64,000 bases of DNA from Chitinophagales bacterium (GTDB lineage: Bacteria > Bacteroidota > Bacteroidia > Chitinophagales > UBA2359): assembly GCA_020629005.1 (NCBI GenBank), contig JAHDEE010000006.1:1-64000 (forward strand), in the 5' to 3' direction. This document shows, in pieces, positions 908 to 34,430 of the stretch (the stretch's first letter is position 1; each line of letters begins with the position of its first letter). The notes beneath the pieces are model-generated. The model saw only the letters and a program-made list of their open reading frames with translations. It was not told where the DNA came from and did no database searches. Made by a program: the position numbers and the translations under genes.

Positions 908-3900
908 TTACAGCTTCAGGAAGTTGACTACTTTGGAGCTGTTTGTCCCTGTGACTTTAATCAGGTACTCTCCTTCAGGCAGTGCTGAAGCATCGTATGC
1001 AATTTGCGTCAGACCTGCACTTGCCTGCTGGCTAAGCTTGGCCACTTCTCTACCCAATACGTCGAAGACGATGATCTCGATCATTTGATCTTGATCAGCG
1101 GCAACTTCGACTGTCATCTGATCCTGAACAGGAATCGGGAATGCCTGTACTTCGAACTTCTCGTTAGCTGCTCTGTTGAGCGTAACAATTTTTTCGACAT
1201 ACTCCTGAGTTCCATCATTATCCACGCTTGAGAGTCTGTAGTAAGACAGTCCCGGAGGCGCATTGAAGTGTAGGTATCCGTAGTTGTTTACAGCGTTTGA
1301 TCCATGGCTCTCCTGACGACTAATCTCCATAAAGTTGATTCCGTCTGTGGAGTGCTCAAGGATAAAGTAGGCGTTGTCCTGTTCGTCTGTCGTGATCCAG
1401 TTGAGCCGGTTGCCTTCTTCCAGTGTCTCACCATCAAAGCTTAGCAACTCAACAGAAAGCTTGATACAAGTCCCAAGGTCTTGTACATCATTAACAAATA
1501 CGCATCCGCCAGCTTCTACTGCTTCGATGTATACACTGTTTACAGCCTGGCCCAATGTCGCTACGAAGCTGTTACCATTCAACTCAATTGTTTCGAAGGA
1601 ACCGGTGATCGTGTACGGAGCCTGGCCTCCAATGATCGTTCCGTATACCTGCCATTCAAGAGCTTCCGAATCGCAGATGTATTCAAGTGCAAGCTCGAAT
1701 TCGTAAGGACAGCTCTCACCTTCCTCTTTGGTTGGATCCGTACCCATTACGATTTCTTCTCCGTCCAGGAGACCATCACCATCCGTATCGGGATTTGTCG
1801 GGTCAGTTCCGAAGTCTCCTTCATCACCATCTGGAATTCCATCACCATCGGTGTCCGGGTTAAGCGGATTGGTGCCTAAATCAACCTCTGCATCTTCAAA
1901 GAGGCCATCATTGTCTTCATCTGATCCCATAGTTGTCGGGTCAGTGCCGTTAGTGATTTCTTGTCCATCTTGTACACCATCACCATCCGTATCAACTATG
2001 GTTGGATCAGTACCGTAGTCACCTTCGTCACCGTCAATCAGTCCATCCCCATCTGTATCAGCAATGGTTGGATCAGTTCCGAAGTCACCTTCATCACCAT
2101 CCTGAATTCCGTCGCCGTCTGTGTCTGGGTCGTATGGATTAGTCCCCAGGTGTATTTCGGCATCTGCATAGAGTCCGTCATTGTCCACATCAAGTCCAGG
2201 ATCAACCGGGTCCGTACCATTGTCGACCTCCTGGCCATCTTCTACACCATCGCCGTCGGTATCAGGAATAGTTGGATCAGTGCCTATGTCACCCTCTTCA
2301 CCGTCATTGATACCGTCACCATCAGTGTCTGGGTCAAGTGGGTCGGTACCCAATTCTTCTTCTTCCTCATCTGAGAGACCGTCTTCATCAGAATCTTCTT
2401 CTTCACAAACGCAGTCAAGCGCTTCACCAAAGTATACAAGGTTGTCAGTGCCATTGCTAACAATGATATTGTAGGCTGCTTCAGCTTTTACAAAGAAAGC
2501 CAAAGTGTAAGTGCCATCAGCCGCTGGTGTAAAGGTAGCTGTAGCTATCGGTTGAGCGGCATCGTCGTAGATGCCGTAGCTGAAGATATCCAGTTCCCAG
2601 GTATCACCAGCTGGAGCAGTAATGGTTGCCAATTCAGCAACGTAAAAGTCGCCACCAACTTGATAGTTATTCGGGTTGTCGCAAACACATGGGTCAGTGA
2701 TATCAAGACCATATGCTGTTGGTACCATTGGTTCTGGGTCCTCTGCATTTGTGTATCCATCACCATCACAATCTCCATCAGGAATTGCCAATGGATCTGG
2801 AGAGCAAGGATCAGTTGGATCAGACTCGTTCTGCAGCTCTTCTACATCGCAGTAGCCGTCGAGGTCGCTGTCTGTATTATTAGGATCACAAGGATCATTC
2901 GGATCAGAGCCTTCTTCGCTCTCTGCATCGTCGCAAATGCCGTCACCGTCAGAATCAGTTGCGCCGTCAGCACAAAGCTCTTCAGGAGCACAGGCAAATG
3001 GTACACAAGGATTTTCTGGAGCCGAATCCGTGTTGTCACAAAGACCATCGCCGTCTGTGTCCGTGCCATCCGGAACACAAGCATTTTCAGGTTGTGGATC
3101 TACAGAGTCGCAGTATCCGTCGCCATCAGCATCTTCGCCATTTGGTACACAAGCATCCTCCGGAGCTGGATCATCATTGTCGCAGATGCCATCTCCATCA
3201 GCATCGCTGCCATTTGGAATACAGGCATTTTCAGGTTGTGGATCTTCATTGTCGCAGACACCGTCGCCATCCGCGTCAGTTCCATTTGGAACGCAAGCGT
3301 CTTCCGGCTGTGGATCTTCATGATCACAGAAGCCATCTCCATCTACATCGCTTGCGTCAGGAATGCAAGGATTGTCAGCATCCGGGTCTTCGTTATCACA
3401 TACTCCGTCTCCATCGCTATCTGTACCATTCGGCACACATGGATTTTCAACCTCCGGATCTTCGTTGTCGCAAACACCGTCACCGTCAGTGTCTGTAGCA
3501 TCCGGTACACATGAATTATAGATTTCCGGATCAATATTATCACAAACGCCATCACCATCACTATCTGTACCTACTGGTACACATGGGTCAAGCACAATCG
3601 GGTCAATAACATCACAGACACCATCTCCATCTGTATCCAATGAGTATGGATTGCATGCATCGTCTGGAGCAGGATCTTCCTGATCACAGATTCCGTCATT
3701 GTCCGTATCTACGCCATTTGGAATACAAGCATTTTCTGGCTCTGGATCGATGTTGTCACAGACTCCGTCACCATCTGCATCGTGATCAAATGGTACACAA
3801 GGATCTTGTGGCTGAGGGTCAATCAGATCGCAGTATCCATCATTGTCGGCATCTTCGCCATCTGGGACACAAGGGTCTTGTGGATCTGGATCAGCATTGT

Positions 3901-6900
3901 CACAGTATCCATCATTGTCGCTATCGCTGTTGTCCGGATTACACGGATCATCAACGTCAGGATCTTCGTTGTCGCAAACGCCATCGCCGTCACTGTCTTG
4001 ACCATCTGGGATACAAGCATTCTCTGGCTCTGGATCAGCATTGTCGCAATGACCATCACCATCCGAATCAGTGCCGTCAGGAATACACTCGTCTTCCGGC
4101 TGTGGATCTTCATTATCGCAGATTCCATCGCCATCTGTATCGCTATCATCCGGGAAGCATGGATCTTCCGGAAGCGGATCAGAGTTATCACAGAATCCAT
4201 CACCGTCTGTATCGGTGCCATCAGGTATACATTCGTCTTCTGGCTCTGGATCAGCATTGTCGCAGATTCCATCACCGTCTGAGTCCGTTCCATTAGGAAC
4301 ACATTCGTTTTCCGGCTCTGGGTCAGCATTATCACAAACACCATCTCCGTCAGTATCTGCTCCCTCAGGAATACACTCATCCTGTGGATCAGGGTCATCA
4401 TTGTCACAGATTCCGTCGCCGTCAGTGTCGCTACCATCCGGTATACAAGCATCTTGAGGATCGGGGTCTGCATTGTCGCAGATACCATCTTCGTCCAGGT
4501 CTTCGCCGTTCGGCACACATTCGTTTTCTGGCTCAGGATCGCCATTGTCGCAGATTCCATCACCATCCGTATCGGTACCGTCAGGTATACACTCATTCTC
4601 TGGCTCTGGATCGGCATTGTCGCAAATGCCATCACCGTCTGAATCTACACCGTTCGGCACACATTCGTTTTCTGGCTCAGGGTCAGCATTGTCACATACT
4701 CCGTCGCCGTCTGTGTCAGCTCCGTCAGGAATACACTCGTCCTCCGGCTCAGGATCTGCATTGTCGCAAATTCCATCACCATCGCTGTCCGTGCCGTTTG
4801 GTATACACTCGTTCTCTGGCTCAGGATCGCCGTTGTCGCAGATTCCGTCACCATCTGTATCGGTACCATCTGGTACACATTCATTTTCTGGCTCTGGATC
4901 TGCGAAGTCGCAAACACCATCACCATCAGTGTCTGTGCCATCAGGGACGCATTCGTTTTCTGGCTCCGGATCTGCGTTATCGCAAACTCCATCACCATCT
5001 GAATCTGTTCCATCTGGTACACACTCATTTTCTGGTTCTGGATCGCCGTTGTCACAGATTCCATCGCCGTCAGTGTCCGTTCCGTCAGGTACACATTCAT
5101 TTTCTGGTTCTGGGTCAGCATTGTCGCAAATACCGTCTAAGTCAAGATCGCTTCCATTTGGAATACACTCGTTTTCTGGCTCAGGATCGCCATTATCACA
5201 AATACCATCTCCATCTGTATCCGTTCCATCAGGTACACATTCATTTTCTGGTTCCGGATCATCAATGTCACAAATTCCATCGCCGTCCGTGTCCGTGCCA
5301 TCTGGGATACAAGCGCTTTCCGGGTCAGGATCTTCGTTATCACAAACTCCGTCTCCGTCTGCATCGGTTCCATCGGCTACGGTGATTTCCATTGAACAGC
5401 TGCTGCTGTTGCCACAAGCATCTGTAGCAGACCAGGAATACACTAGAACCAAGGGATTTTCAGGACATCCGGATCCTCCGTTGTCTTCCGATCCCAGGAA
5501 CAGAATCTCCACTGATCCGCAATCGTCGTCTGCTACAATAACCACAGAATCTGGCGATGGAACAGCGTCAAGGCTCGTCAAGGACAGTGCATCAGGACAA
5601 GTAATTGTCGGTGCAGTATTGTCTCCTACGCTAATTGTCTGAGTGGCTGTCGTGACATTTCCGCAATCATCGGACAATGACCAGACTCTGGAAATCGTAT
5701 AGGAACCAGCGCAGTCACCCTCAGTCATCATATCTTCGTAAGTAGCCTCAGCTACGGTCTCGCTACATGAGTCTGCCTCGTCAGTTACATCGCCAGCCAA
5801 TTCAAGATTTGAGAGGTCTTGATCACATCCCAGGCTAACATCTGCAGGAACGGTGAAAGTTGGAGCTGATTCGTCGTAAACTGTTATTGTCTGAGTGGCA
5901 GTTGTTGTGTTTCCACAGTAATCTGCAACCATCCAGGTTCGAGTTACGGTGCTTGCACCAGCGCAGTCCCCTTCAGCTACCTCATCTTCATAAGTGGTCG
6001 TTATTAAATCCTGGAAGCAGTTGTCGAACAGTTCGCTAACTGTACCGGTCAATTCTGTATTATCGATGTCTTGCTCGCATGAGATGCTTACTGCAGACGG
6101 CGCAGTAAATTCTGGCGCTGTTGTATCTTCCAGATAGATCAATTGCTCTGCAGTGCTGCTGTTTCCGCAAGCATCTGTGGCAGTCCAAGTCCTGGTTACT
6201 ATGCGATTTCTTTCGCACATGTTGTAGCCATTGTCTTCATCGACATAGGTCAGTTCAACTTGATCAGCTCCACAATTGTCGTAAAGTTCCAACACAGCTC
6301 CTGTGAGATCGGTGTTTGAAAGGTCAGTATCGCATTCAACCGTGATTTCGGTCGGAGCAACAAATTCAGGAGCAGTGGTATCCTGCTGTGTAATGACCTG
6401 AATATCGGTTGTGGAATTTCCGCAAGCATCCGTTACTGTCCAAATTCGATTGATAATATTATATCCTGGACATTGTTCTCCTTCTACTACATATTCGTCT
6501 ACATATTCAGCTGTCAATCCTTCCGAGCAATTGTCTGCCGCATCGTTAACGGTTCCCAAAGCTTCCTTGTCAGAAAGATCAATATCACACTCTACTACAA
6601 TGTTGTCAGGAGCAGTAAAAGTTGGCGGCGTGGTATCCTGCACAGTGATGATCTGAACTGCCGTTGCAGTATTTCCACAAGCATCGGCTAGCGACCATGT
6701 TCTTTGAATTGTAGCGCTGCCTTCGCAAGCGGCATCGTCTTCAAGTGGTTTGTCTTCGTATGTAGCTTCCAACATACCCTCTGTACAGCTGTCTGCGGCA
6801 TCGCTAACATTGCCAGTAAGTTCCAGATTGTTTGGGTCCTGGTCACATTCAATGACTGCATCTGCCGGAGCAGTGAAGGTCGGAGCAGTTTCATCTACTA

Positions 6901-9900
6901 CAGTAATTACTTGTAGTTGGCTGCTTGTGTTTCCACATGGATCTGTGGCAGACCAAAGTCGATTAATGGTATAGTTACCACTGCAAGTACCTTCCGCTGG
7001 AATTACCTCATCTTCGTAAGTGGCAGTCAACATTCCTTCAGCACAGTCATCAGTCACTTCAATCATGATTTCGCCCGGGCCAAGGTCAGCATCGCAGCTG
7101 AGTGTTAGGTCTTCAGGAGCAGTAAATACTGGCCCGTGTGTATCCTGTACAGTGATCGTTTGTATAGCTGTGCTTGTGTTACCGCATTCATCACTTACTG
7201 ACCAGGTTCTGGTAATCGTATAATTTCCAGTACAGCCTTCCAGTTCGCTCTTTGAGAACTCGTCTGTGTAGCTTGCTGCCAATTCGCCTTTGCTACAGTT
7301 GTCTGTTGCATCTGCAACAGTACCAACAATATCAGGATTGTCAATATCCGCAGTACATTCGATCGTAAGATCAGCAGGAGGGGTGAAACTTGGTGCCATT
7401 TCGTCAACAACAGTAATCACCTGAACCTGTGTAGTGGTGTTTCCACAAGGATCTGTAGCAGACCATGTTCTGTTAATGGTATAGCTACCGGAACAGCCGC
7501 CTTCGCTTACAATAAGCTCATCCTCATAAGCAGAGGTGATGCCTCCTTCTGCGCAGTCATCATTTGCATCCAACTTGATCTCTCCCGGCGCCGTATCCGA
7601 ATCGCAGCTGACAGTCATGTCTTCAGGAGCGGTGAAAACTGGTCCATGTGTGTCTTGAACGCTTATTATCTGTACGGCTGTAGTTGCATTGCCGCACTCG
7701 TCTGTGAGTGTCCAGTTCCTGAAGATCGTGTAGGTCCCGGTACATGTTTCTAATTCTCCTGGAGTAATCACGTCTTCATAAACTGCTTGCAATTCTCCCT
7801 TTGAGCAGTTGTCTGCTTCATCGGTTACATCTCCAAGCAATTCCAGGTTTGATACATCCTGGCTACATTCAATCACTGCATTATCAGGTACAGTGAAAGT
7901 TGGAGCAGTTGTGTCTTGAATAGTAATATTTTGTGTGGCTGTAGCTGTATTGCCGCAATCATCGACAGCGGTCCAGGTTCTGCTGATGGTATAGTTCGAA
8001 GGGCAAGCTGTAGTTACTTCACTGGATAGTTCTCCTCCGGTTTCGCCAGAGCTGATCTTGTCTTCATAACTGACTTGTAGTTCACCTGTATTGCAATCAT
8101 CGCTTAGATCTGAATAGTCTCCTGTGAGTTCTAGATTTGTTGGGTCCTGATCGCATTCTAGTGTCACGTCTTCTGGCGCTGTAAAGGTAGGAGCGGTTGT
8201 GTCCTGAACTGTAATAGTTTGTTTTGCCAGAGCAATATTTCCGCAGGCATCTTCAACTGCCCAAAGTCTTGTAATGACATAGTTTCCCCGGCATGATTCT
8301 CCCTCAGGTGCCAGAACTTCATCTGTATAAGTTGCCCCGAGGAGTGCTTCTGAACATGCATCTGCTCCATCTGTAACTGTACCGGTAACGGCCGGGTCGT
8401 CGAGGTCGGCACCACATTCTACTGTCACGTCGGCTGGGGCGGTTAAAGTGGGCAATACGTCTGCCACTACAGTGATGACCTGGACATGGCTGGTACTGTT
8501 CCCACATGGGTCAGAAGCTGTCCAAACTCTGTTAATAACATATGCATTTGGGCAGCCATTTTCACTCGGTATGATTTCGTCAACGTATGTTGGTGCGAAG
8601 GCTTCCTTGCTACAAGCATCTGCAGCTCCTTTTGTTACTGATCCGGCTGCTTCTGCGATATTTACATTGCAGCTTAGCGTCACATCTTCTGGTGGAGTAA
8701 ACTGCGGTCCCTCTGTATCAACGACAGAAATCACTTGTACAGCTGTGCTTGTGTTACCACAGGCATCGGTAAGCGTCCATGTTCTGTTGATAGTGTATGC
8801 TCCCGTACAAGCAGTTACTTCTCCTGGTATGTTCTCGTCGGTATAGGTAGCTTGCAAAAGTTCCTCAGAACAGCTATCAGCTTCATCCACAACATCACCA
8901 GTAAGCTCAAGGTTTCCTGCCGACTCAGTACATTCAATGCTAACATCACCTGGCACTGTAAAAGTCGGTGCTACATCATCTACCACTGTTATTACCTGGG
9001 TCTGATAAGAAGAGTTTCCGCAAGCATCTGTTGCTACCCAGGTCCTATTGATAATATAATCGTTTGCGCAACCACCTTCAACGGGCTCTGTCTTGTCGCT
9101 GTAGGTAGGAACGATGGTCCCTTCGTTACATGGGTCTATTATCTCTGCGGAAACAGTTCCTGCTACCTCGTCAACGTTGTCGGTGCAGCTGATTGTAATA
9201 TCAGCAGGAGCTGAGAATACAGGGCCCTGTTTGTCTACTAGTGTAATGACCTGAGTTGCCGACGCGGAGTTTCCACAAGCATCTGTTAGCGTCCACACTC
9301 TGTTAATGGTGGAATTTCCCGTACAACCCGGAATCGCTCCTGGAACTACTTCATCGACGAAGGTGGCTTCCAAGGGGGCTTCTGAGCAGCTGTCAGCTTC
9401 ATCTGTTACATCTCCCATGAGTTCCAGGTTGGACACGTCCTGATCGCAACTGACACTGAGATCTCCGGGTACTGTGAAAGTGGGTAGTACGGTATCCGTG
9501 ACAGTGATTACCTGTACCTGCACATTAGAATTTCCGCATGGGTCGCTGGAAGTCCAGGTTCTGTTTATCGTATATTCCCCAGGACATCCTGTTTCTCCAG
9601 GAATGATTTCATCCGTGTAAGTTGGTGTGAAAGTTCCTATGTTACAAGCATCAGCGCCCCCTTTTTTGATGGCTCCTCCAGCAATGCTCAGGTCCGAGTC
9701 GCAACTAACTGTTGCGTCTGGCGGAGCTGTAAAGCTTGGCGGAGTAGTATCCTGTACAGTGATGATTTGCACCTGCGGCGTTTGATCCGGGCAAGCAGGA
9801 ATAATAGACCATGTTCTTGTAATGGTATAGTTTCCCTGACAAGCTTCAGGAGTGCCAGGAGTAATTTCGTCCACGTAAGTAGCTTGATCACATCCAGCTG

Positions 9901-10078
9901 GTTCGTCCAGCACATCTCCGACTATTACGAGGTCGCTTGTGCTTTGTGTGCACTCAATTGTGATGTCCGGCGGTGCGGTAAATGCCGATAGGTTAGTGCA
10001 ACAAATGAGCTGTAGCAGGATCAATAGCAGCAAGTGCGTATGCCATTTTCCTACCCAATAAATGAAATTTTTATTCAT
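908..10078 (-). CDS. Giant T9SS-secreted repeat protein (HYR-like + Cys-TSP3 + TSP3 + type A sorting domain)
   Basis: A 3056-residue protein. Residues 1-32 form a signal peptide (KWHTHLLLLILLQLICC core). Residues 33 to about 1566 hold 18 repeats of about 85 residues of the HYR-like type, each starting FTAPxDxxxxC and ending ATDxCGNxxTxxQxITVxDTxAP, with about four cysteines each. Residues 1567-2359 hold 33 copies of a 24-residue DxDGDGxCDN unit. A non-repeated domain (about 2390-2555) follows, then 10 classical TSP3 repeats (DTDGDGxxDGxE...GTDP, about 2560-2781). About 2782-2970 includes a segment typical of Bacteroidota surface proteins (LSFDGETLEEGNRLNWIT...). The last ~80 residues (QAFPIPVQDQ ... 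FDVLGREVA ... LPEGEYLIKV) are a T9SS type A sorting domain. Predicted calcium-binding, surface-attached or released; the biological role is not known. Confidence 0.9.
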   Translation of the reverse strand: MNKNFIYWVGKWHTHLLLLILLQLICCTNLSAFTAPPDITIECTQSTSDLVIVGDVLDEPAGCDQATYVDEITPGTPEACQGNYTITRTWSIIPACPDQTPQVQIITVQDTTPPSFTAPPDATVSCDSDLSIAGGAIKKGGADACNIGTFTPTYTDEIIPGETGCPGEYTINRTWTSSDPCGNSNVQVQVITVTDTVLPTFTVPGDLSVSCDQDVSNLELMGDVTDEADSCSEAPLEATFVDEVVPGAIPGCTGNSTINRVWTLTDACGNSASATQVITLVDKQGPVFSAPADITISCTDNVDEVAGTVSAEIIDPCNEGTIVPTYSDKTEPVEGGCANDYIINRTWVATDACGNSSYQTQVITVVDDVAPTFTVPGDVSIECTESAGNLELTGDVVDEADSCSEELLQATYTDENIPGEVTACTGAYTINRTWTLTDACGNTSTAVQVISVVDTEGPQFTPPEDVTLSCNVNIAEAAGSVTKGAADACSKEAFAPTYVDEIIPSENGCPNAYVINRVWTASDPCGNSTSHVQVITVVADVLPTLTAPADVTVECGADLDDPAVTGTVTDGADACSEALLGATYTDEVLAPEGESCRGNYVITRLWAVEDACGNIALAKQTITVQDTTAPTFTAPEDVTLECDQDPTNLELTGDYSDLSDDCNTGELQVSYEDKISSGETGGELSSEVTTACPSNYTISRTWTAVDDCGNTATATQNITIQDTTAPTFTVPDNAVIECSQDVSNLELLGDVTDEADNCSKGELQAVYEDVITPGELETCTGTYTIFRNWTLTDECGNATTAVQIISVQDTHGPVFTAPEDMTVSCDSDTAPGEIKLDANDDCAEGGITSAYEDELIVSEGGCSGSYTINRTWSATDPCGNTTTQVQVITVVDEMAPSFTPPADLTIECTADIDNPDIVGTVADATDNCSKGELAASYTDEFSKSELEGCTGNYTITRTWSVSDECGNTSTAIQTITVQDTHGPVFTAPEDLTLSCDADLGPGEIMIEVTDDCAEGMLTATYEDEVIPAEGTCSGNYTINRLWSATDPCGNTSSQLQVITVVDETAPTFTAPADAVIECDQDPNNLELTGNVSDAADSCTEGMLEATYEDKPLEDDAACEGSATIQRTWSLADACGNTATAVQIITVQDTTPPTFTAPDNIVVECDIDLSDKEALGTVNDAADNCSEGLTAEYVDEYVVEGEQCPGYNIINRIWTVTDACGNSTTDIQVITQQDTTAPEFVAPTEITVECDTDLSNTDLTGAVLELYDNCGADQVELTYVDEDNGYNMCERNRIVTRTWTATDACGNSSTAEQLIYLEDTTAPEFTAPSAVSISCEQDIDNTELTGTVSELFDNCFQDLITTTYEDEVAEGDCAGASTVTRTWMVADYCGNTTTATQTITVYDESAPTFTVPADVSLGCDQDLSNLELAGDVTDEADSCSETVAEATYEDMMTEGDCAGSYTISRVWSLSDDCGNVTTATQTISVGDNTAPTITCPDALSLTSLDAVPSPDSVVIVADDDCGSVEILFLGSEDNGGSGCPENPLVLVYSWSATDACGNSSSCSMEITVADGTDADGDGVCDNEDPDPESACIPDGTDTDGDGICDIDDPEPENECVPDGTDTDGDGICDNGDPEPENECIPNGSDLDLDGICDNADPEPENECVPDGTDTDGDGICDNGDPEPENECVPDGTDSDGDGVCDNADPEPENECVPDGTDTDGDGVCDFADPEPENECVPDGTDTDGDGICDNGDPEPENECIPNGTDSDGDGICDNADPEPEDECIPDGADTDGDGVCDNADPEPENECVPNGVDSDGDGICDNADPEPENECIPDGTDTDGDGICDNGDPEPENECVPNGEDLDEDGICDNADPDPQDACIPDGSDTDGDGICDNDDPDPQDECIPEGADTDGDGVCDNADPEPENECVPNGTDSDGDGICDNADPEPEDECIPDGTDTDGDGFCDNSDPLPEDPCFPDDSDTDGDGICDNEDPQPEDECIPDGTDSDGDGHCDNADPEPENACIPDGQDSDGDGVCDNEDPDVDDPCNPDNSDSDNDGYCDNADPDPQDPCVPDGEDADNDGYCDLIDPQPQDPCVPFDHDADGDGVCDNIDPEPENACIPNGVDTDNDGICDQEDPAPDDACNPYSLDTDGDGVCDVIDPIVLDPCVPVGTDSDGDGVCDNIDPEIYNSCVPDATDTDGDGVCDNEDPEVENPCVPNGTDSDGDGVCDNEDPDADNPCIPDASDVDGDGFCDHEDPQPEDACVPNGTDADGDGVCDNEDPQPENACIPNGSDADGDGICDNDDPAPEDACVPNGEDADGDGYCDSVDPQPENACVPDGTDTDGDGLCDNTDSAPENPCVPFACAPEELCADGATDSDGDGICDDAESEEGSDPNDPCDPNNTDSDLDGYCDVEELQNESDPTDPCSPDPLAIPDGDCDGDGYTNAEDPEPMVPTAYGLDITDPCVCDNPNNYQVGGDFYVAELATITAPAGDTWELDIFSYGIYDDAAQPIATATFTPAADGTYTLAFFVKAEAAYNIIVSNGTDNLVYFGEALDCVCEEEDSDEDGLSDEEEEELGTDPLDPDTDGDGINDGEEGDIGTDPTIPDTDGDGVEDGQEVDNGTDPVDPGLDVDNDGLYADAEIHLGTNPYDPDTDGDGIQDGDEGDFGTDPTIADTDGDGLIDGDEGDYGTDPTIVDTDGDGVQDGQEITNGTDPTTMGSDEDNDGLFEDAEVDLGTNPLNPDTDGDGIPDGDEGDFGTDPTNPDTDGDGLLDGEEIVMGTDPTKEEGESCPYEFELALEYICDSEALEWQVYGTIIGGQAPYTITGSFETIELNGNSFVATLGQAVNSVYIEAVEAGGCVFVNDVQDLGTCIKLSVELLSFDGETLEEGNRLNWITTDEQDNAYFILEHSTDGINFMEISRQESHGSNAVNNYGYLHFNAPPGLSYYRLSSVDNDGTQEYVEKIVTLNRAANEKFEVQAFPIPVQDQMTVEVAADQDQMIEIIVFDVLGREVAKLSQQASAGLTQIAYDASALPEGEYLIKVTGTNSSKVVNFLKL
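1735..2400 (-). repeat. 10 classical thrombospondin type 3 repeats
   Basis: The unit DTDGDGxxDGxExxxGTDPTxP recurs ten times without cysteines. The series contains an internal duplication: blocks DxDNDGLYADAEIHLGTNP and DEDNDGLFEDAEVDLGTNP open two similar sub-arrays. These repeats normally bind calcium and form a rigid stalk before the sorting domain. Confidence 0.8.
3000..5379 (-). repeat. 33 tandem 24-aa (72-bp) cysteine-bearing TSP3-like repeats
   Basis: The unit consensus is TDTDGDGICDNxDPEPENECVPDG minus minor variants, written here in parts: TDTDGDGICDN followed by xDPEPENECVPDG. I counted 33 consecutive copies with no insertion. The DxDxDG loops are calcium-binding in thrombospondin type 3 repeats, and each unit has two cysteines at fixed spacing (11 residues apart). 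Antisense frames across this stretch produce long spurious open frames. Confidence 0.85.
5380..9982 (-). repeat. 18 tandem HYR-like repeats (about 85 aa each)
   Basis: Each unit has xC near residue 11, a mid-unit DxC, a further C before YTINRTW, and a final CGN. The last unit (starting ITCPDALSL) is divergent. Two unit types alternate over repeats 2-13: type A (SC start, SDPCGN, QVQVITVVD) and type B (NLELTGDVTDEADSC, LTDACGN, AVQVITVQD). This is an Ig-like beta-sandwich class commonly found in Bacteroidota surface proteins. Confidence 0.85.
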
Positions 10079-10560: not shown

Positions 10561-10751
10561 GGCGGAAAAACCTTGCCAATAGCCTCGATAGAAGTGGAAA
10601 TAGCGCTGCACTGAACTGACTGACTGCGCCCGCTGGCAGGGCTCCCAAAGGAGACCTGCCAGCGGGATGCAGGAAGCAGTGAAGGGTAGTGCTATTGGAG
10701 CGGATAGCGAGCAAGACGCTTACGCGTTGGTTTAATGCTTCGCTCCTAAAA
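10561..10751 (-). repeat. Nested-hairpin repeat element, copy A
   Basis: Read on the minus strand it starts TTTTAGGAGCGAA and ends with ATCGAGGCTATTGGCAAGG. The inner stem is CCCGCTGGCAGG paired perfectly with CCTGCCAGCGGG (10629-10640 and 10655-10666), around a GGTCTCC...GGAGCC core. Copies B (18483-18670) and C (33539-33727) share the ends, core and about 190-bp length but have different stem sequences. It lies between two minus-strand T9SS genes. Confidence 0.65.
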
Positions 10752-17767: not shown

Positions 17768-18487
17768 TTGAAATTAGACATTCTTTTTCAAGACGAAAGC
17801 TTGGTTGCTATCAATAAACCTCCCGGTTTGCTCGTCCACCGCACTAGAATTGCCGAAGAAAGGAAGTACTTCGCATTACAATTGCTACGCAATCAGATCG
17901 GTCAGAGAGTTTATCCTGCCCATCGGCTAGATCGGAAAACATCCGGAATATTGCTTTTTGCAAAAAACAAAGAAGCGGGAGCCATCTTGGCCGAACGATT
18001 TCGCTCTCGTTCTGTCAGGAAAATCTATTATGCCATCGTAAGAGGCTATATTGAGGAGAATCAGCTTATAGACTACGAACTCAAGAAGGCAAAGCTAGGG
18101 CTGGCACAGGAGGCAAAGACCCACTACAAACGTCTGGCGCAGGTCCAGATCGATATCCCTGTCGGGCCATATCAACAATCTCGCTATTCACTTGCGGAAG
18201 TTCAACCACTAACAGGTCGCATGCACCAAATCCGCCGACATTTCGCGCACATTCGTCACCCTATAGTGGGTGATCGGCCACATGGCGATTGGCGGCACAA
18301 TAAGATGTTCAAAGAGACTTTGGGTATTCCGCATATGCTGTTACACGCCTCTTCTCTTCAATTCCAACATCCCTTCAAGACACAAGTCATCCAACTCAGA
18401 GCACCGTTATTCGACTCTTTTGAGAAGGCTTTGGCCACTTTTGGCTGGCAAATCCCGAAGGAAGAGAATTTGAAAAATTTGCTTTAG
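17768..18487 (+). CDS. truC: tRNA pseudouridine(65) synthase TruC
   Basis: A 239-residue protein of the RsuA/RluA pseudouridine synthase family. The motif HRLDRKTSGILLFAK (residues 52-66) carries the catalytic aspartate D55. The KPPGLLVHRT block near residue 17 and the GRMHQIRRHFAHIRHPIVGD block are also typical. GDWRHNKMF after VGDRPHG is characteristic of TruC rather than RluA/RluD. It isomerises U65 in certain tRNAs in the cytoplasm. The frame has no ATG: an in-frame TAG lies at 17747-17749, so TTG at 17768 is the most plausible start. The stop codon overlaps the beginning of a hairpin repeat element (18483). Assignment to TruC is by motif memory. Confidence 0.82.
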   Translation: MKLDILFQDESLVAINKPPGLLVHRTRIAEERKYFALQLLRNQIGQRVYPAHRLDRKTSGILLFAKNKEAGAILAERFRSRSVRKIYYAIVRGYIEENQLIDYELKKAKLGLAQEAKTHYKRLAQVQIDIPVGPYQQSRYSLAEVQPLTGRMHQIRRHFAHIRHPIVGDRPHGDWRHNKMFKETLGIPHMLLHASSLQFQHPFKTQVIQLRAPLFDSFEKALATFGWQIPKEENLKNLL

Positions 18488-18670
18488 GAGCGAACAGCTA
18501 TTCGTTCGCGCTACCTGTAGTCCCGCTATCCATTGCAATTCACCCCGTATCTGCTTGTTCATGCTCAGGCAACCAGGTCTCTCCGCAGGCTCCGAGCCCC
18601 GGTTGCCTGGCATTCACCACAGCAGCTACGGGGTTCATTTTCATTTCTATCGGGGCTATTTTGAAAAGTT
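18483..18670 (+). repeat. Nested-hairpin repeat element, copy B
   Basis: It starts TTTAGGAGCGAA, overlapping the truC stop codon, and ends TCGGGGCTATTTTGAAAAG. The inner stem CAGGCAACC (18566-18574) / GGTTGCCTG (18601-18609) is perfect, and the outer stem ACCCCGTATCTGCT (18542-18555) / AGCAGCTACGGGGT (18621-18634) pairs at 13 of 14 positions. The core reads GGTCTCTCCG...GCTCCGAGCCCC. Arm sequences differ from copies A and C but pairing is kept. Confidence 0.7.
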
Positions 18671-18769
18671 CTTTAGCGCGTTACCGGCAATCAATCTATC
18701 ACTTTTTGTAAGCACTGATGATCCGGTTTTCGTAATGGCGATATTAAACTGTTGAAAATAAAAGACTAA
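18671..18769. other. Intergenic, nothing identified
   Basis: A short stretch between the hairpin element and the second MITE copy. No gene, promoter or terminator is supported. Confidence 0.4.
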
Positions 18770-18925
18770 GGGATAGGGAATCAATAACTGTCCGATTTTG
18801 ACGTCGCTGGAAATGATTTAGACGAGGCATTTTTTGACAGCATCCTTGTTGGCTGGTGGAGAAAAATAACGATGGATAAAGCATTTCTAGCAAGTCAAAA
18901 TGGACAGTTATTGATTCGCTGTCCC
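18770..18925. mobile_element. 156-bp MITE-like element, copy 2
   Basis: Same length, orientation and sequence as the copy at 10900-11055, with one substitution (G at 18881). It is flanked by TAA on both sides (18767-18769 and 18926-18928), a possible 3-bp target duplication. It lies between truC and the palindromic element, outside any gene. Confidence 0.75.
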
Positions 18926-22220: not shown

Positions 22221-25200
22221 ATGAGGATATTATTTTTTCTCCTACTGTTGTCAATAGGTACTTTTCGACTTGATGTATTGAGGGCTCAGGATGCCCTCGA
22301 TGTACTTTCATTGGAATGTTTAGATTCGTCAGACTATTTACTTGTGCCGATGGTGATCAATGGGGAGCAGCCGCTGGAAATTGTTCATTCCGATTTGGAA
22401 TCTACTGTTGGAATCTACATATCACTCTCCTCCTCGGAGGTGCATCCCACGAACATAATCGTGACTCCTGACAATGGAGAACCCTTCGCCCTGGAGATGC
22501 ATCCTACTGAGCAAAACACCATTTTTTGGACTGGCTACTTGCCGATTGCACTGGGCGACTTTAGTGTGCAAGCGGATGGAGCTAACATTGAAGAAGAATC
22601 TTTTATCACATCAATCTATGTGCTTGGTAGTGCAGGTTTTACCGCAGGGAATATTGACGCATATTTTTTTGGCGAATTTCTGGATTACAATTTGGGTCCT
22701 CCCTTCATTCAGCCAATGGAAGATTGCTACAGTTTTGATGTTCCAATTGCGGTCGATCCACAAGGGAATTTGCACAACTATTTACTTAAGTTAGTGCTAC
22801 GCGATTTGCAGGGATCTGAGAATCCAGCCTCTCTTCGGCTTACCTATGGGGATATAAGCGCTGAATTTGAGATTTTCGGAACAGAAGCGTTTTCCGACCT
22901 GGCCGTATTTGAACAGACGCTCATTAACGTTGATCCCACTGGAGTTCCTTTGGAAATTCTGCTCTGTTCCAAACAGTTTAATGCGAATGATGCCCTTGGA
23001 CAACCTTTCTTTCTAGAATCAATTGCTTTGCTTGAAGAAGATGATTGTTGCTTTGAAGTTCTGGACACACAAGTTACCCCTCCAGACTGTGGCCAAAACA
23101 ATGGGTCAATTGCTCTTCTGCTCTCTGAAGACACCGGCCCCTTTCAGATTGACTATACGCTTCCAGACGGAACTCCGGTTTCGGAGACAATTCCCTTTCA
23201 GAACGGGGGGGTTACTATCGAAAACCTTCCTGCAGCTAACTATATTATAACAATCACAGATACGGAGGGTTGCGAACTTGTTTTATCTAATCTGACGGTA
23301 CCTACAGCCGCTGGCTGCTGCGATGATCTTTCGCTCACTTACATGAGCTTCAACCCAAGCGCCTGTGGGGTAAATGACGGCTCCATTGATATGCAGGGAG
23401 TTGGAGGCAGTGGTGAATATGAATTTTCAATCGATGGTGGTGAAATATGGTTCACTGCAGGATTGTTCAACAATCTTCCTCCTGGGAGCTACCCCTTAGC
23501 AATCAGAACAATTCAAGATGATTGCTTCGCATTAGCAGAAACAGCAATCTTGACAACACCAGAAGGCATTGTCGTGACAGACGTAAGCGTCAGTCCGGTC
23601 TCTTGCTTTGGTGACGAAGATGCTCAGATCACCGTTACCGTAGATGGAGCTACAGCTGGTCTGCAATATAGTATCGACGCAGGCATTACTTATCAATCGG
23701 AAAATGTTTTTGCTGGGCTTGCGGCAGGAATCTATGAACTGTTTGTCAGTTCAGGAGATGATTGCACTATTGAATATGGCCAAATTTTGATTGAAGCTCC
23801 GACAGAATTGGAACTCATAGATATCGTTGATAACGACGTTAACTGTGTGGGAAATGGTGAGGGCTCGATCGAGATATATGCTTCAGCTGGTGAAGGGGTA
23901 TCACTTCAATATTCAATAGATGGCGGTGAAACCTTTACAGATAACAGTGTATTCCTGGGATTAGATCCTGCTGTTTACCAAATAGCCGTTCGTAATCTTG
24001 CAGGCTGCTTGGTAACTGGTGAGGCGACCATCAATTTTAATGGTGCAGATCTCGTTGAGTTTGATGTTAGTTTCCAGGAAAACTCTGGTTGCGGCGAGCA
24101 AGATGGTTTTATTGAATTCACCGCCTTGGGCGGTGTTCCTCCCTATCAATATTCAATCGATGGAGGACTTGTTTATCAGACTCAGCCTTTATTTGAGAAT
24201 CTTGGAGGGGGCTTTTATGAGCTATACATCAAAGATCAAAACGATTGCATCGGAACCTATGAAGCTGGGGTGCTTTCCTTCGCCTCTTCTGAATCCCCGC
24301 TGGTTTCTGATGTGCAATATTTTAATCCTTCCTGTTTTGGGGGTGACGACGGTGTGATCTCGATTGTCGCAGCCGGCGGCTCCGGAATCCTCGAATACTC
24401 TGTGGATGGTGGCGACACTTATATCGCTTCCAACACTATCGACGGTCTAACTTCAGGCTTGTACGAAATTCTGGTAAGGGACGATGCTGGCTGTACCGTC
24501 ACTTTTGAAAATGAGATATTGCTTCTTGATCCAGATCAGCTTTCAAACATAACAATAGAAATTACGCAGCTGCTAGATTGCGAAAGTAACAGCGCAACTG
24601 TTGAGGTATTTACTGTAGGCGGGACAGGATTACTGGAATACTCTGTTGATGGGGGCGAAACCTATTCTTTTGACAATAGCTTTATCGATCTTGATGCAGG
24701 GATTTACAATGTAGTGGTAAAGGATGCGAATGATTGCTCCCTCGATTACGAGGAAAATCCAGTGATTATTGAAGAGCCAACTGAATTCCTTGGCGTGGAT
24801 GTTTTGGCGCTGGATGTCACTTCCTGTGCTGAGCCCGATGGGCAGATCATCATTACTGCAACTGGAGGAGTTGATCCGCTTGAGTATTCAATTGACAATG
24901 GTATGACCTTTACGGAAGAGAATGTATTTAGCGGATTGTCAAGCGGAGAGTATCAGATTCTGGTTCAAGATGGTCTGGGCTGCGAAGCTGCTTACACAGA
25001 AACAGTAACGCTGGGACAGCCAGATGACATCGCGATCACAGATGTGCAAACTACACCGCTCGTTTGTTCGGGAGACGGTACAGGCCAGGTGACAGTATTT
25101 GCTTCTGGCGGCGCAGAGCCTTTGGAATATTCGCTCAATGGTGAGGACTGGCAATCAAATAATCAGTTTACTGATTTGCAAGCCGGTTCCTACACGGTCT

Positions 25201-28200
25201 GGGTGAGAGACGACCTCGCTTGTCTGATTCACACCGATGAGTTTGTCAGCTTGACAGAACCACTGCCAGTAACGGTGGCGGAAGTCATTGCTACCGATCT
25301 TTCTTGCCCTGAGTCAAATGACGGTACCATTACCGTTTTTGCCTCCGGTGGTAGCGGTGCCTTACAGTACTCTATTGACGGAGGAATTAACTTCAGCAGT
25401 TCAACGGTATTTACTGATCTCCCTCCCGGTGCATACAGTGTACTGGTTGCTGATGATTCAGATTGTACCTCTGATTTGACAGTAGCTACAGAAGTCTTGG
25501 AAGCAGAAACGCCGATTATAAATGTGTCAATCACAAATGCAAATGATTGCGAGTCTAACAATGGTTCCATCGAGATAGAAGTAGTAGATGGCTTGGAACC
25601 CTTGACATACTCCATTGATAATGGAGAAAATTATTCCTCGGACCCCTTCTTTGCAGAACTGGGTGGTGGTGTGTATCAACTACTGGTTCGAGATGCAGAG
25701 CTTTGTGTTTATAATTATGGAAATGTTGAACTGTTCCAGGGAGCAGAAATCAACTTCACCGCTGAACCAGCAGTCGTTGATCCGGATTGTACGGGGCTAG
25801 GAGGCTCCATATCCATTCAAGTCGATGGCGGCGCAGAGCCGTATGCATATTCGATTGACAATGGAAGTTCCTTTCAGGATACTGGTTTGTTTGAAAATCT
25901 GGGGGAAGGAGATTACTTGATTCAAGTAGCTGATTCTGCCAATTGTACAGCAAATTATAGTGAGGTCATAAGCCTCGTGGCTCCTGCGTCATTTGAGATA
26001 CTCGATGTACTTGTTGCACCGTTTGATTGTGCAGGGGCCCTGGGGTCAATTCAGATTTCAACTTCAGCTGCTGATCTTAGCTATTCAGTAGATGGCACAA
26101 ATTTTCAAAATGAAAGTCTCTTTGAGGATTTGCCCGCAGGCTCCTACACAGTAGTTGTTCAGAATCAAGATGGTTCTTGCGCTCAGGAATATTTGGACAA
26201 TCCAGTAGTAATAGAGCCAAGTGGCGATTGCGGCAGCATCTCAGGTGTTGCATTTATTGACGAAAATGGTAATGAGCAATATGATGTAGGAGAGCCACTC
26301 ATTGAAGGGGCCTTGGTCTCCATAATTGCCCCGGATGGAACGCTAACAGTGTTAGAAACGGATGAGCTTGGTGCCTATGAACTTATAGGAGTGGAGCCTG
26401 GGGATTACATAGTCTCCATCAATCCGGATTCTGTGGCAGAGAACCTCATACCAATCACTGCAGTTTCTGAAACAGTGTCTGTAGGAGATGGTACTGGCGC
26501 AGAAGTAGACTTTGGTTTTGCGGAAGATATTCCGAATACTCTGGAATTGGTAGATGATCTGGTAAATGTAGACTTTGGAGAAACCGTAGAGATCGACGTA
26601 CTTGCAAATGATCTGATTGACGACCTTCAAATCATTGACTGGACAGAGACAGCAAATGGCACATTTGAACTGACAGAAGACGGCACTTTGATATTTACAC
26701 CTGCTGAAGGCTTTACCGGAAGTCTGACCATTCAATACTCCGCACAAAATTCTGCTGGAGAACAAGGTATTGCAACGCTGACGATCAATGTGGGCCCGAA
26801 TGCTATTGATGACTACTTTATTACACAACCAAATACTCCAGTAACCTTCAACCCGCTTACAAATGATCTTGGTGTGGATTTGTCTGTTGTGGATTTCACA
26901 ATACCAGATGGTGGTGAACTGATTCTTGGTGATGATGGAGAGTTCACTTTCGTGCCCATAGATGGCTTTGAAGGATCCGTCACCTTCATCTACACGATCG
27001 AGGATGCTAACGGCAATACAAGCACAGCAATTGGTACCGTGGAGATCACCTTCGATATCCCAACTCCTCCAGTAGCTATGGATGATACTTATAACACCTT
27101 TCAAGGAGTTTCAATATCTCTTGATGTACTGGAAAATGACTCGGGTGTATCGATCGCTATCGAAACACTTGTGCCTCCGGTCAATGCTATTACCCTGATA
27201 GAGGGAGAAATGATCCTATTTACTCCCGAGGATGGATACATCGGCGATATTACTTTTACTTACACCATTGTTGATGCCGCGGGACAAACTGACACAGCAA
27301 TCGTGACAGTCACAGTGGAAGCAGATGACTCTCTGGTTGTTGACGCCATCAATGACTTTGAAGAAACAGACAACAACTCTCCCATCGTGATCGATGCATT
27401 GCTAAATGACATAGGTGCTGGTATCTACATTTCAAGCTTTACACAACCTGCCTTTGGAGGAGAAGTGATTTTGGGCGACGATGGTTTGATCTTTACACCG
27501 GACTCGAATTTTGTTGGTCAAGCGGTTTTCCAATACAGTATCTCGGATCAGGAAGGAAACATGGATACTGCAACAGTAACAATTACCGTCTTCTCCTCTG
27601 ATGCCCCAGACGCTGTCGATGACTTTTACACAACTACGGTCAATACTCCGATTAACCTGGACCTGATTGAAAATGACACCGGCTTCGCCATCGTGATCGA
27701 GGAAGTTAGCTTGCCAATACCTTCGGGAGGTACAATTCTAAATGATGATGGAACAGTGACCTTTATTCCAGAACAGGGTTTCACTGGTCTTGTTGTATTC
27801 ACATACTCGATTCTAAATCAAGATGGTCTGTCAGATACAGCTACCGTGACAGTAAATGTAGTGTTGGAAGCCAACTTGCCACCATGTGTGGACACCTTGT
27901 CTTTCTGCACGACTCCTCTCTCTACTGTTCCGGTGTGCTTCGATTACTGTGAGCCGGAGGGACAACCAAGCACCATCGTAGATGTACAAACTACCTTCAA
28001 CTGTAGTATATCGGTGACCAGTGACCTCTGCTTCAATTATACACCGCTACCGCAATTCTTTGGAATGGATTCAGTCTATGTCACAATTTGTGATAATCAG
28101 AACCCTCAAGAGTGTTCAGTCTCTACGGTATTTGTGTTCACACTCGGACCAGACCAAGAGGTCGTGCTGGCAGTTGACGACACTTTCGAGATTCCTGCAA

Positions 28201-31200
28201 ATCAAAGTATGCAGATCGATCCTTTAAGCAATGACGAAGGAGAACAACTGTTCCTACTTGAATTTACCGAACCAGGTGAGGGGGCGAGTGTAACTCAACA
28301 AGGAGCTCAATTGCAGGTAAGTCCTGACCCGGATTATCTGGGGCAGGTCCAGTTTGATTACCAAATCGAAGACTTTTGCGGTTCAATTTCTCAGGCAACC
28401 ATTACCCTGGATATTATCGATCCGGTAGAAGATCCGTTTGAAGCGGTACCTGATGTCGTAAATACCATCACCAACACCCCAATCAATATTTCTGTATTGG
28501 ATAATGATACAGGTGAAGGACTAATGATCACTGGGGTAACACAGCCTGAAGTTGGAGGTACAGTCATGATCGTTGGCGACGATATTGTATTCACTCCAGA
28601 TGATGACTTTACCGGTTTGGTCGAATTTGAATACACCATAACAGATGAAAATGGACAAACAGCAAATGCCACTGTTACCGTCCTTGTGGAAGATCCACCT
28701 GAACCAGTTTGCGATACTTCCGCATATTTAACGGCCCTATGTACAGTGCCAGTCCAACCAGAAGTTATATGCTTCGATTGGTGTACCCTCGAGGGCGACA
28801 GCATTGAAGTGGTAGAAGTAACAGCACTATACAATTGCAGCATCAATCTGGACGATCATCCCCCTGAATGCTTTGGATATACTGCATTGCCAGGTTCAGC
28901 CGGACTAACTAACGAGCTCACGGTGGTAGCCTGTGACAATAACGAGGTCTGTGACACTGCCTACGTTGAAGTATATGTGGGATGTTTCCCACCGCTGGCA
29001 TTGGACGATTTCGTCTTACTGGAGGAAGAATCAATAATGATAGATGTACTAGCCAACGATAGCGATCCATGCTACTCAATCGACACCTTGACTACCCTGG
29101 CTATTACGCAACCACTCAACGGAACCATTGAGCCGGATGCAGCAGGTCGGTTCAACTATACACCCAATGAGGGCTTTATTGGAACAGATTCCTATACCTA
29201 CCAGGTATGCAATCCATGTATCGATCTCAGCTGTGATACGGCAACTGTTACAATCACGGTCCTGGATGTCACACCTCCTGAGGAGATCATCGCTGTGTTG
29301 GATGTAATCACAACTCCCTACGAAACACCAGTTACTATCGAGGTCTTAATAAATGATTCCGGTGAGGGCATCTCCATTGATTCCTTCACTGACCCAATCA
29401 ACGGTACCGTCAGCTTGAGTCCCGACGGTAGCGCATTAGTTTATACGCCAAACCTGGGTTTCAGCGGGGGAGACTTCTTCTTCTATACTATAATTGATGA
29501 AGAAGGAAACACATCGACCGCAGCTGTCACAGTTGAAGTGCTCGAAGATGGCGCACCAAACCAACCACCTTCAATCAACGGAGATGTATTTGAAGTCGAA
29601 CCAAATGAAATAGTTACACTGCCTGTTCTGGATAATGATTCAGATCCCGAAGGCGGCGAGATCTCGATACTTGATGTTATTGGACCAGACAATGGAGGAA
29701 CAGTGACCTTCAACGAAGATAGCACGGAACTGATTTTTACTCCAGATCCCGACTTTATTGGAGAAGTGGAATTTGAGTACGTGGCCTGTGATGATGATGA
29801 CCCTCCTGCTTGTGACACAGCAACAGTGGTGATCTCCGTTGGGACGGAAGTCAGCAACAATTCCCCCGTAGCTACTATAGATGAAGCAACCCTCACCAAT
29901 ATGGACGAGTTTGTGGTCATTGGCGTCTGCGGTAATGACTTGGATATTGACGGAGACCAACTTTCTGTATCGATACTGGTGCCTTCTGCGATTGGCTCCA
30001 TTGAGCAAGATCCTACAGATGATTCTGGTTGCACGTTCATCTATACTCCCAACGAATTTATCGATGGAGCTCAAGATGTTTTCAGCTATTTGCTTTGCGA
30101 CAATGGTATTCCTGTGCTCTGTGACTCTACATTTGTAACAGTCAACTATACCTTCATCCCGGAAGAGATTAGTGCTGAGCCAGATGCAGCGACAACCAAT
30201 TTTGAGGAATCTATAACCATTCACGTACTGGCAAACGATATTGGGGAAGGCCTTACAATCATTGAAATAGCGCAGCCGGAAAACGGCACTGTAGCATTCA
30301 ATGAAGACAGTACTGCCATTATATATACCCCAAATCCTGGTTTTGACGGAGATGATCTCTTCTTCTATACCATCATGGATGCCGATGGCAACACAGATGC
30401 CACCGTTGTCACTATCACTGTGCTGCCGGATGATCAGGAAAACCTACCTCCATTGGCCAATAATGATAGCTTTGAATTCGAAGAGTATGAAGAGCTAATC
30501 ACTTTGGATGTCTTAGGAAACGACACCGATCCAGAGGGAGGATTACTCACCATCACCGAAGTGATAGGGCCCACAGAAGGAGGAACCGTCACTATTAGCG
30601 AGGATGGAACTAACTTGATCTTCGCTCCCGATTCTGGGTATGTAGGCAATATCAGCTTCGATTATGAAGTCTGCGATGAAGAAGGCCTCTGCGATACTGC
30701 AACAGTCGCAATCGCACTAGGTGGAATGGAACCAATCAACTCAGCTCCAATCGGAATAGAGGACAATTTCGATATGCTACCGACTGAAGACTTCATCATC
30801 ATCGATGTTTGTGCCAATGATAGCGACCCGGATGGAGACGACCTTAGCGTTTCTGTCCTGGGGCCTCCGGCCTTTGGAATCGTTACGGCAGATGAATCGG
30901 ACCCCTCTGGTTGTACTATGATTTATACCCTGCTGGATCCTGATGCAGACACCGACGGATTTTCATATCTGCTCTGCGACAACGGAGAGCCGCAACTATG
31001 CGATACTGTAGCCGTCATTATCACGATCTATCAAGGTACTGGCGAAGTCGAGCTAAATCCCGACGTTGTGCAAACGCCGTACGAAACCAGTGTTACCATC
31101 GATGTACTGCTAAATGACAACGCAGACTTTCCACTTACCATCACCGGTTTTACCAATCCGGAAAATGGCACAGTAGCCTTTGGTGAAGGTGGAACGGTTC

Positions 31201-33538: not shown

Positions 33539-33727
33539 TTAGGAGCTAAAAGTCTCTCCTTCGCCTAAGCTGCCTTCCCGTGCTCCATTATTATTCGTAC
33601 CGCTGCTGCCTGCTACAGCATCACCTGCAGGGTCTCTCCGGCAAGCTCCGAGCCCCCGCAGGTGAGCTTCCGCCACGGCAGCAGCGGCACTCATAGCCAT
33701 TTCGCCCGGGGCTATTTTGAACCTTCC
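33539..33727 (+). repeat. Nested-hairpin repeat element, copy C
   Basis: It starts TTAGGAGCTAAAAG and ends CGGGGCTATTTTGAACCTTCC. The inner stem is CACCTGC (33622-33628) / GCAGGTG (33658-33664); the outer stem is CCGCTGCTGCC (33600-33610) / GGCAGCAGCGG (33677-33687). Both are perfect. The core is GGTCTCTCCGG...GCTCCGAGCCCC, as in copy B. Confidence 0.7.
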
Positions 33728-34139: not shown

Positions 34140-34430
34140 AACTTGGTCATGTAATGGTATGAGCTTGAGCGCCCACCAGCCGCTATTATCGTACTGAGAT
34201 TGACCAGGCTGTGCAACCAGCATCCCTAACAGGATGCAAAGGCACACATCCTTAACCATCACCATTAAGCAACTGACGAAACCAGCGTGCCTGAGGTCTC
34301 TCCGGAGATTTGGGCATGCCGTATTTAGCCCCCTTGCCAGGCTTCACGGGTACCCCGTATTTACACCCAGGATGATAGCAAGTGTCTGATTCGTCGGAAT
34401 TGGGTTTTTGTGATGGAAAACAACTAAATT
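34140..34430 (+). promoter_or_regulatory. Putative structured 5' leader of the 3892-aa gene
   Basis: Contains a two-part hairpin GTGC (34211-34214)...GCATCC-CTAACA-GGATGC (34220-34237)...GCAC (34242-34245). A second hairpin is GCGTGCC (34285-34291) / GGCATGC (34313-34319) enclosing GGTCTCTCCGGAGA, the same core as the nested-hairpin family. No gene lies here; a leader role is inference. Confidence 0.4.

What the first reader, a model, noticed from the sequence alone, without database searches (positions are those of the whole stretch)
18483..18670. A ~190-bp nested-hairpin repeat with different stems but kept pairing (copies at 10561-10751 minus, 18483-18670, 33539-33727)
Three intergenic copies share a start (TTAGGAGCKAA), an end (TATCGRGGCTATT or CGGGGCTATTTTGAA), a core (GGTCTCTCC ... 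GCTCC/GAGCCC) and a length of 188-191 bp. The inner stems are unrelated in sequence yet pair perfectly in each copy (12, 9 and 7 bp). The outer stems of copies B and C (13/14 and 11/11) are also unrelated to each other. Changes that keep pairing are the signature of selection on a folded RNA or DNA. It may be a novel structured RNA, a REP-like element, or a mobile element using a hairpin. Copy B overlaps the truC stop codon; a partial relative of the core lies at 34285-34319.
Basis: seen in the sequence. Interest (0 to 1): 0.75.

Follow-up and report, generated by a model that had tools for sequence, protein, structure and literature searches.

The report
High-copy Flavo-1-type hairpin repeat, enlarged
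The three 'nested hairpin' sites are copies of a repeat present several hundred times in this Chitinophagales genome; it is an enlarged, diverged form of 'Flavo-1', catalogued as a small RNA of unknown function, and its behaviour fits a scattered hairpin DNA element better than an RNA gene.

Summary
All three copies match one covariance model (118-178 bits). The genome holds at least 158 exact-motif copies (reversed control 0), probably 400-700. Pairing is overwhelming: 95.8% of cells paired against 65% in shuffles, 31 of 36 pairs with two-sided changes. The folding strand is the minus strand of copies B and C. There it is a distant relative of Rfam Flavo-1 (RF01705): copy B scores 40.7 bits (cut-off 42), and shorter versions in related genomes pass the cut-off. 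Flavo-1 has no known function. Copies show no strand preference relative to genes, no conserved promoter, turnover at orthologous sites (at one Flavobacterium-like locus absent from all 20 congeners sampled) and opposite orientation behind truC in a congener. I favour a strand-specific hairpin DNA element of REP-like behaviour, mobilised in trans by an unidentified enzyme. Group-5 RAYT transposases are not its proven partner: none of 29 RAYT loci elsewhere is flanked by Flavo-1. An RNA role is not excluded. New features: the enlarged nested hairpin, confined to one genus in the collections searched, and paired direct-repeat motifs on both sides of the hairpin. New variant of a known kind.

The parts
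18484..18663 (-). Copy B, whole element (given on the folding/Flavo-1 strand; conserved 5' TTAGGAGC end is at 18484 on the + strand)
   Evidence: CM 178 bits; Flavo-1 40.7 bits, minus strand, 18515-18661
33539..33719 (-). Copy C, whole element
   Evidence: CM 154.6 bits
10575..10749 (+). Copy A, whole element (opposite orientation; folding strand is + here)
   Evidence: CM 118 bits on the minus strand
18484..18491 (+). Conserved 5' motif TTAGGAGC of copy B; supplies the truC stop codon TAG at 18485-18487
   Evidence: GGAGC nearly invariant in 94 copies; truC ORF end
18504..18517 (+). Upstream direct-repeat motif D1 of copy B (TTCGCGCTACC type)
   Evidence: fixed-register similarity to D2 over 80 copies
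18522..18525 (+). Outer helix, 5' arm CCCG (pairs with 18651-18654 CGGG)
   Evidence: 100% paired in 31 copies
18542..18549 (+). Middle helix, 5' arm ACCCCGTA (pairs with TACGGGGT 18627-18634)
   Evidence: sequence; covarying helix
18566..18574 (+). Inner helix, 5' arm CAGGCAACC (pairs with GGTTGCCTG 18601-18609)
   Evidence: sequence; covarying helix
18576..18599 (+). Apical core GGTCTC...GAGCCC: invariant closing helix with one mismatch and a variable loop module
   Evidence: alignment A1; genome-wide pattern
18601..18609 (+). Inner helix, 3' arm
18627..18634 (+). Middle helix, 3' arm
18651..18660 (+). Outer helix 3' arm and conserved 3' motif CGGGGCTATT
18673..18688 (+). Downstream direct-repeat motif D2 of copy B (TTTAGCGCGTTACCGG); the conserved element reaches about 25 bp beyond the covariance-model end
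   Evidence: 3' flank profile; D1/D2 register test

Best explanation
Shown: the element is a divergent, enlarged member of the Flavo-1 group, present in several hundred dispersed intergenic copies, whose strand-specific fold is conserved while helix sequences differ from copy to copy. Inferred: it acts at the DNA level. When one strand is single (for example lagging-strand template) it folds into a long hairpin that a DNA-processing enzyme recognises together with the flanking GGRGC and D motifs, which recur as direct repeats on both sides. Copies are scattered, lost and re-inserted by that route, as REP elements are thought to be by RAYT (TnpA_REP) nucleases, and are tolerated mainly between genes and away from divergent promoter regions. 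The enzyme is not identified.
For: Copy number and dispersal on both strands. Two-sided covariation with strand bias: consensus -57.0 kcal/mol on minus against -39.0 on plus; minus lower in 80 of 80 copies; wobble-type cells 26 (minus) against 1 (plus) at shared pairs. Turnover: at one Flavobacterium-like locus none of 20 congeners has Flavo-1 in the orthologous gap; at a second, two fully syntenic congeners lack it. Behind truC the congener G001 has a copy in the opposite orientation and five checked family members have none. No orientation preference: a gene reads into the element's plus strand in 40 and its minus strand in 39 of 66 contexts; convergent 22, divergent 9. No conserved sequence beyond about 25 bp on the side where a minus-strand promoter would lie. 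Published: Flavo-1 hits in F. psychrophilum lie in sense or antisense of transcribed regions and many outside them (PMC9723704). Direct-repeat D motifs in fixed register, 0 of 1000 permutations.
Against: No mobilising enzyme shown: 0 of 29 group-5 RAYT loci elsewhere carry Flavo-1 nearby, 11 of 26 Flavo-1-rich genomes lack that RAYT, and G001 has no Y1 hit. No near-identical copies among 80 (best 87%, mean 71%), so no sign of recent bursts. No exact empty site or target duplication recovered. Some sharing of element sites between the two congeners: 5 unascertained ortholog pairs against about 2 expected (expectation is my estimate). The D1/D2 copy-specific match was not significant in G001 (p 0.12). 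Wobble pairs on the minus strand would suit RNA equally well.
Confidence: 0.5

Rival explanations
1. A structured RNA (as Rfam classes Flavo-1): a dispersed RNA element made from the minus strand, acting in trans or as a 3'/5' UTR element.
For: Minus-strand fold far better than plus, G-U tolerated on that strand only; purine-rich GAA/GGA internal loops on that strand (sequence); Rfam match; some 5' transcribed regions of F. psychrophilum coincide with Flavo-1 (PMC9723704).
Against: No orientation preference relative to neighbouring genes, no conserved promoter, non-conserved positions, opposite orientation at truC in the congener, hundreds of copies.
Confidence: 0.25
2. REP element of the Bacteroidota RAYT group 5 (TnpA_REP subclass 2.6).
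For: Co-occurs with that RAYT across 294 genomes (61/47/56/130, odds ratio 3.0, p 8e-6, not corrected for phylogeny); both group-5 RAYT genes of the host have an element 0.3-0.6 kb away; subclass 2.6 is reported to be flanked by atypical structures (PMC6006769).
Against: 0 of 29 RAYT loci in other genomes has Flavo-1 within 1.5 kb; one inspected locus carries other palindromes, TCGCAAAGTT-N10-AACTTTGCGA; by my estimate about a fifth of host genes have a neighbouring element, so two of two is weak.
Confidence: 0.12
3. A structural or regulatory chromosomal repeat, such as an mRNA-stabilising hairpin or supercoiling/insulator site, kept for host benefit.
For: Excess at 3' ends over divergent regions; some element sites shared between the two congeners.
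Against: Equal sense and antisense placement; absence from most orthologous sites in Flavobacterium-like genomes; no U-tract hairpin end.
Confidence: 0.1
4. Folded single-strand recombination site of a tyrosine recombinase, integron attC-like.
For: Only one strand is under folding constraint; conserved motifs on both sides of a hairpin with free stem sequence.
Against: D motifs are direct, not inverted (inverted match no better than permuted); copies about 10 kb apart in both orientations, no cassette arrays.
Confidence: 0.03

Closest known systems
Rfam RF01705, Flavo-1 RNA (Weinberg et al. 2010, PMC2864571)
   Same: Same strand, same outer architecture: CCCG/CGGG helix, 3x3 purine-rich internal loops, variable inner hairpin...TAGCCCCGAT... 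and ...GGAUAGCGGGA... motifs; many copies per Bacteroidota genome.
   Different: Host copies lie just under the curated cut-off (40.7, 32.5, 28.0 bits; GA 42), the inner hairpin is about 75 nt longer with a conserved GGTCTC...GAGCCC core, and a GGAGC box and D motifs outside the Rfam model are conserved.
REP/REPIN elements and RAYT (TnpA_REP) nucleases
   Same: High-copy dispersed intergenic strand-specific hairpins, mismatched stems, enriched at 3' ends.
   Different: No GT[AG]G foot; much longer (175-185 against 20-40 bp); no cognate RAYT shown.
Integron attC sites
   Same: One strand folds; pairing rather than sequence is conserved.
   Different: No inverted core boxes, no cassette arrays, dispersed in both orientations.

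Membership tests
Rfam Flavo-1 (RF01705) | Match at or above the gathering score (42 bits) | tested here: not met
   Window copy B 40.7 bits, E 1.9e-7; L036 32.5, L061 28.0; window none at gathering. Short forms in related genomes reach 43-62 bits, linking the two through intermediate forms found with one model.
Rfam Flavo-1 (RF01705) | Helix order, internal loops and orientation of the family consensus | tested here: met
   Full-length 1-76 alignments on the minus strand
Rfam Flavo-1 (RF01705) | Found in Bacteroidota | tested here: met
   108 of 295 genomes of the class, 0 of 14 controls; the only named genome with the enlarged form is a Chitinophagales MAG
Rfam Flavo-1 (RF01705) | Is transcribed as an RNA | not testable with these tools
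   No transcript data; literature report shows no orientation preference (PMC9723704)
REP element of a RAYT | GT[AG]G tetranucleotide at the hairpin foot | tested here: not met
   Conserved motif is GGAGC, about 30 nt from the hairpin in host copies
REP element of a RAYT | Copies flank the cognate RAYT gene | tested here: inconclusive
   Host 2 of 2 within 0.7 kb; 0 of 29 in other genomes
Integron attC | Inverted core boxes and tandem cassette arrays | tested here: not met
   Inverted match between flanks no better than permuted; dispersed
Intrinsic terminator | GC hairpin directly followed by a U-tract | tested here: not met
   Flank profile: only TTTTG on the plus side, none on the minus side
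MITE of a DDE transposase | Terminal inverted repeats with target-site duplication | tested here: inconclusive
   Ends TTWGGAGC and CTATTTTG are not inverted repeats; direct D motifs exist but not as exact flanking duplications

The most novel reading that the evidence does not exclude
Flavo-1 is not an RNA family but a Bacteroidota-wide class of strand-specific hairpin DNA elements with an unidentified processing enzyme, recognised by shape plus GGRGC/D motifs. In this genus it has grown a nested hairpin whose stems diversify copy by copy while staying paired, perhaps by hairpin-templated conversion of one arm by the other.
Probability: 0.4. Interest if true: 0.75.

Novelty: new variant of a known kind. 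Interest (0 to 1): 0.58.

Why it matters
Flavo-1 is one of the more abundant listed bacterial 'sRNA' families, without a function since 2010. Copy number, strand bias, site turnover and orientation data make 'RNA gene or mobile hairpin DNA?' directly testable, and would change how hundreds of loci per genome are annotated. The saturated yet paired stems also offer a natural data set on how compensatory changes arise.

Tried and rejected
Rfam at gathering threshold on the window: no hit, misleading because copy B misses by 1.3 bits. First reading of the plus-strand fold, that near-absence of G-U pairs means DNA: withdrawn, because on the correct strand wobble pairs occur. RAYT group 5 as partner: co-occurrence found, but no flanking in 29 loci. 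Empty-site test inside the host genus by DNA: congener too diverged. Direct repeats as target-site duplications: significant in the host, not in G001, so no claim of a duplication. Whether elements at orthologous sites are the same copy: mostly not more alike than random copies. Whether contig ends behind copies mark a rearrangement hot spot: mostly other repeats and heptamer arrays. Literature search for a renaming of Flavo-1: none found. The sampled contigs were partly chosen because they held a copy, which biases the density upward; scaling the 158 motif matches by model/pattern hits in the same contigs gives about 430, density gives about 670.

Full report
WHAT IS THERE. The three sites are real. 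A covariance model built from 31 copies of the host genome, the three window copies among them, finds them at 10575-10749 (-), 18484-18663 (+) and 33539-33719 (+), with 118, 178 and 154.6 bits, and nothing else in the window above 12.3 bits; the proposed partial copy at 34285-34319 is not recovered. The window lies on a 72-kb contig of a 6.9-Mb draft genome in 456 contigs. In that genome the strict end pattern occurs 38 times and the core-to-end pattern 158 times; both reversed controls are 0. All 150 candidates the tool scored exceed 140 bits. In 389 kb of contig stretches there are 38 copies. Density gives about 670 copies; scaling the 158 matches by the ratio of model to pattern hits in the same contigs gives about 430. 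I state 400-700.

STRUCTURE. Over 31 distinct copies, 95.8% of cells of the minus-strand structure are standard pairs (shuffled 65.3%, sd 1.0), 31 of 36 pairs have two-sided changes, and the covariation score is 0.781 against 0.196 shuffled and at most 0.13 when slid (the plus-strand version is weaker). The shuffles do not remove relatedness, but the slid controls keep it and are far lower. At several inner pairs all four Watson-Crick types are nearly equally frequent. The consensus fold is -57.0 kcal/mol on minus and -39.0 on plus; the minus strand has the lower energy in 80 of 80 copies; at the 32 pairs common to both structures, 26 cells are wobble on minus and 1 on plus. So one strand only is under folding constraint: minus for copies B and C, plus for copy A. 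On that strand conserved 3x3 internal loops are GAA/GGA type and some apparent 2x2 mismatches of the plus strand are tandem wobble pairs.

IDENTITY. On the minus strand, copy B matches Rfam RF01705 Flavo-1 over all 76 positions with 40.7 bits (cut-off 42; E 1.9e-7 in the 401 bases given); two other host copies score 32.5 and 28.0. Related genomes hold shorter versions found with the same model, several at or above the cut-off (up to 61.8 bits). RF01705 itself is found in 108 of 295 genomes of the class and in none of 14 controls. The enlarged form with its GGTCTC...GAGCCC core was found, in 84,980 named species genomes, only in one Chitinophagales MAG (records of the host itself may be hidden). 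Flavo-1 was described in 2010 without function (PMC2864571).

ANATOMY BEYOND RFAM. Upstream (plus strand) is TTWGGAGC(GAA), nearly invariant in 94 copies; downstream GGGGCTATTTTGCACC; beyond about 25 bp nothing is conserved. GGAGC/GAAGC is also present 0-40 nt before the core in Flavobacterium-like copies. About 20 nt after GGAGC and about 15 nt after GGGGCTATT lie similar motifs, D1 and D2, as direct repeats; within a copy they match more than between copies (mean 6.55 of 10 against 6.08, sd 0.11; 0 of 1000 permutations; an earlier test gave 1 of 2000). In the congener G001 the same motifs flank the hairpin, but the within-copy excess is not significant. In copy B: D1 TTCGCGCTACC, D2 TTTAGCGCGTTACCGG.

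BEHAVIOUR. Among 66 host copies, 22 lie between convergent genes, 35 between tandem and 9 between divergent genes; a gene reads into the plus strand in 40 and into the minus strand in 39 cases (ORF-based, approximate). At one locus of a Flavobacterium-like genome with Flavo-1, none of 20 congeners has it in the orthologous gap; at a second, the two congeners syntenic on both sides lack it; the gaps instead hold other short repeats. Behind truC, host copy B supplies the stop codon; the congener G001 has an element there in the opposite orientation; five relatives inspected have none. Some element sites are shared between the two congeners (5 unascertained pairs; about 2 expected by my rough estimate), but the shared-site copies are mostly no more alike than random ones. 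No two of 80 copies exceed 87% identity, so transposition, if it occurs, is not recent, or the stems change fast.

MECHANISM. Shown: a strand-specific fold under selection, high copy, dispersal and site turnover. Not shown: transcription, an enzyme, an exact insertion footprint. Equal sense/antisense placement, lack of a promoter-like block, turnover and reversed orientation speak against an RNA gene or a cis-acting UTR element, and agree with the published remark that Flavo-1 hits in F. psychrophilum lie indistinctly in sense or antisense of transcribed regions or outside them (PMC9723704). I infer a single-strand hairpin DNA element that works like REP elements. Direct rather than inverted terminal motifs would suit an enzyme that reads both ends on one strand (HUH/Y1 type, established for IS200/IS605 and RAYT), but that is inference. 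The obvious candidate, the Bacteroidota RAYT group 5 (PMC6006769), co-occurs (odds ratio 3.0) but does not sit beside Flavo-1 at 29 loci in other genomes, so it is not claimed.

VERDICT. A confirmed, abundant, strongly covarying hairpin repeat; a new enlarged variant of the known Flavo-1 group; RNA-or-DNA remains open, with DNA favoured.

Noticed in passing
3' flanks of host copies, e.g. L123:6216-6300, L130:5840-5924: Period-7 tandem arrays (TTTTGGG, GGGATCT, GATTGCT, CCCTCTA ...) lie within a few hundred bases of the element's 3' end in 10 of 69 copies, some starting at once, against one period-7 array on the 5' side.
   Followed up: partly
host contig starts, e.g. G000 C50, C200, C377: Assembly contigs tend to end on the 3' side of an element: among listed copies within 500 bp of a contig start, 18 face it with their 3' side and 1 with the 5' side. 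Several tails hold other repeats.
   Followed up: partly
window 18766-18835: Downstream of copy B, ACTAAGGGATAGGGAATCAATAACTGTCCGATTTTGACG... belongs to another repeated sequence of this genome; 31-mers of a similar tail recur in at least four other stretches.
   Followed up: no
L319:946-976 and 1547-1576: A RAYT group-5 locus in another Bacteroidota genome carries palindromes TCGCAAAGTT-N10-AACTTTGCGA, possibly the real REP of that RAYT group.
   Followed up: no
L131:6132-6308 and L134:3602-3777: A host copy and its congener counterpart next to an orthologous gene lie in opposite orientation, and this host copy is the best match of 94 to the congener's copy (77%); possibly an inverted orthologous element.
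   Followed up: no
window 908-10078, 22221-33395, 34431-46109: Three very large ORFs of 3056, 3724 and 3892 codons, not examined.
   Followed up: no
L109:365-486 and L109:1501-1622: Two near-identical short copies in genome G020, 1.1 kb apart, share about 50 bp upstream but have unrelated downstream flanks directly after the element.
   Followed up: no
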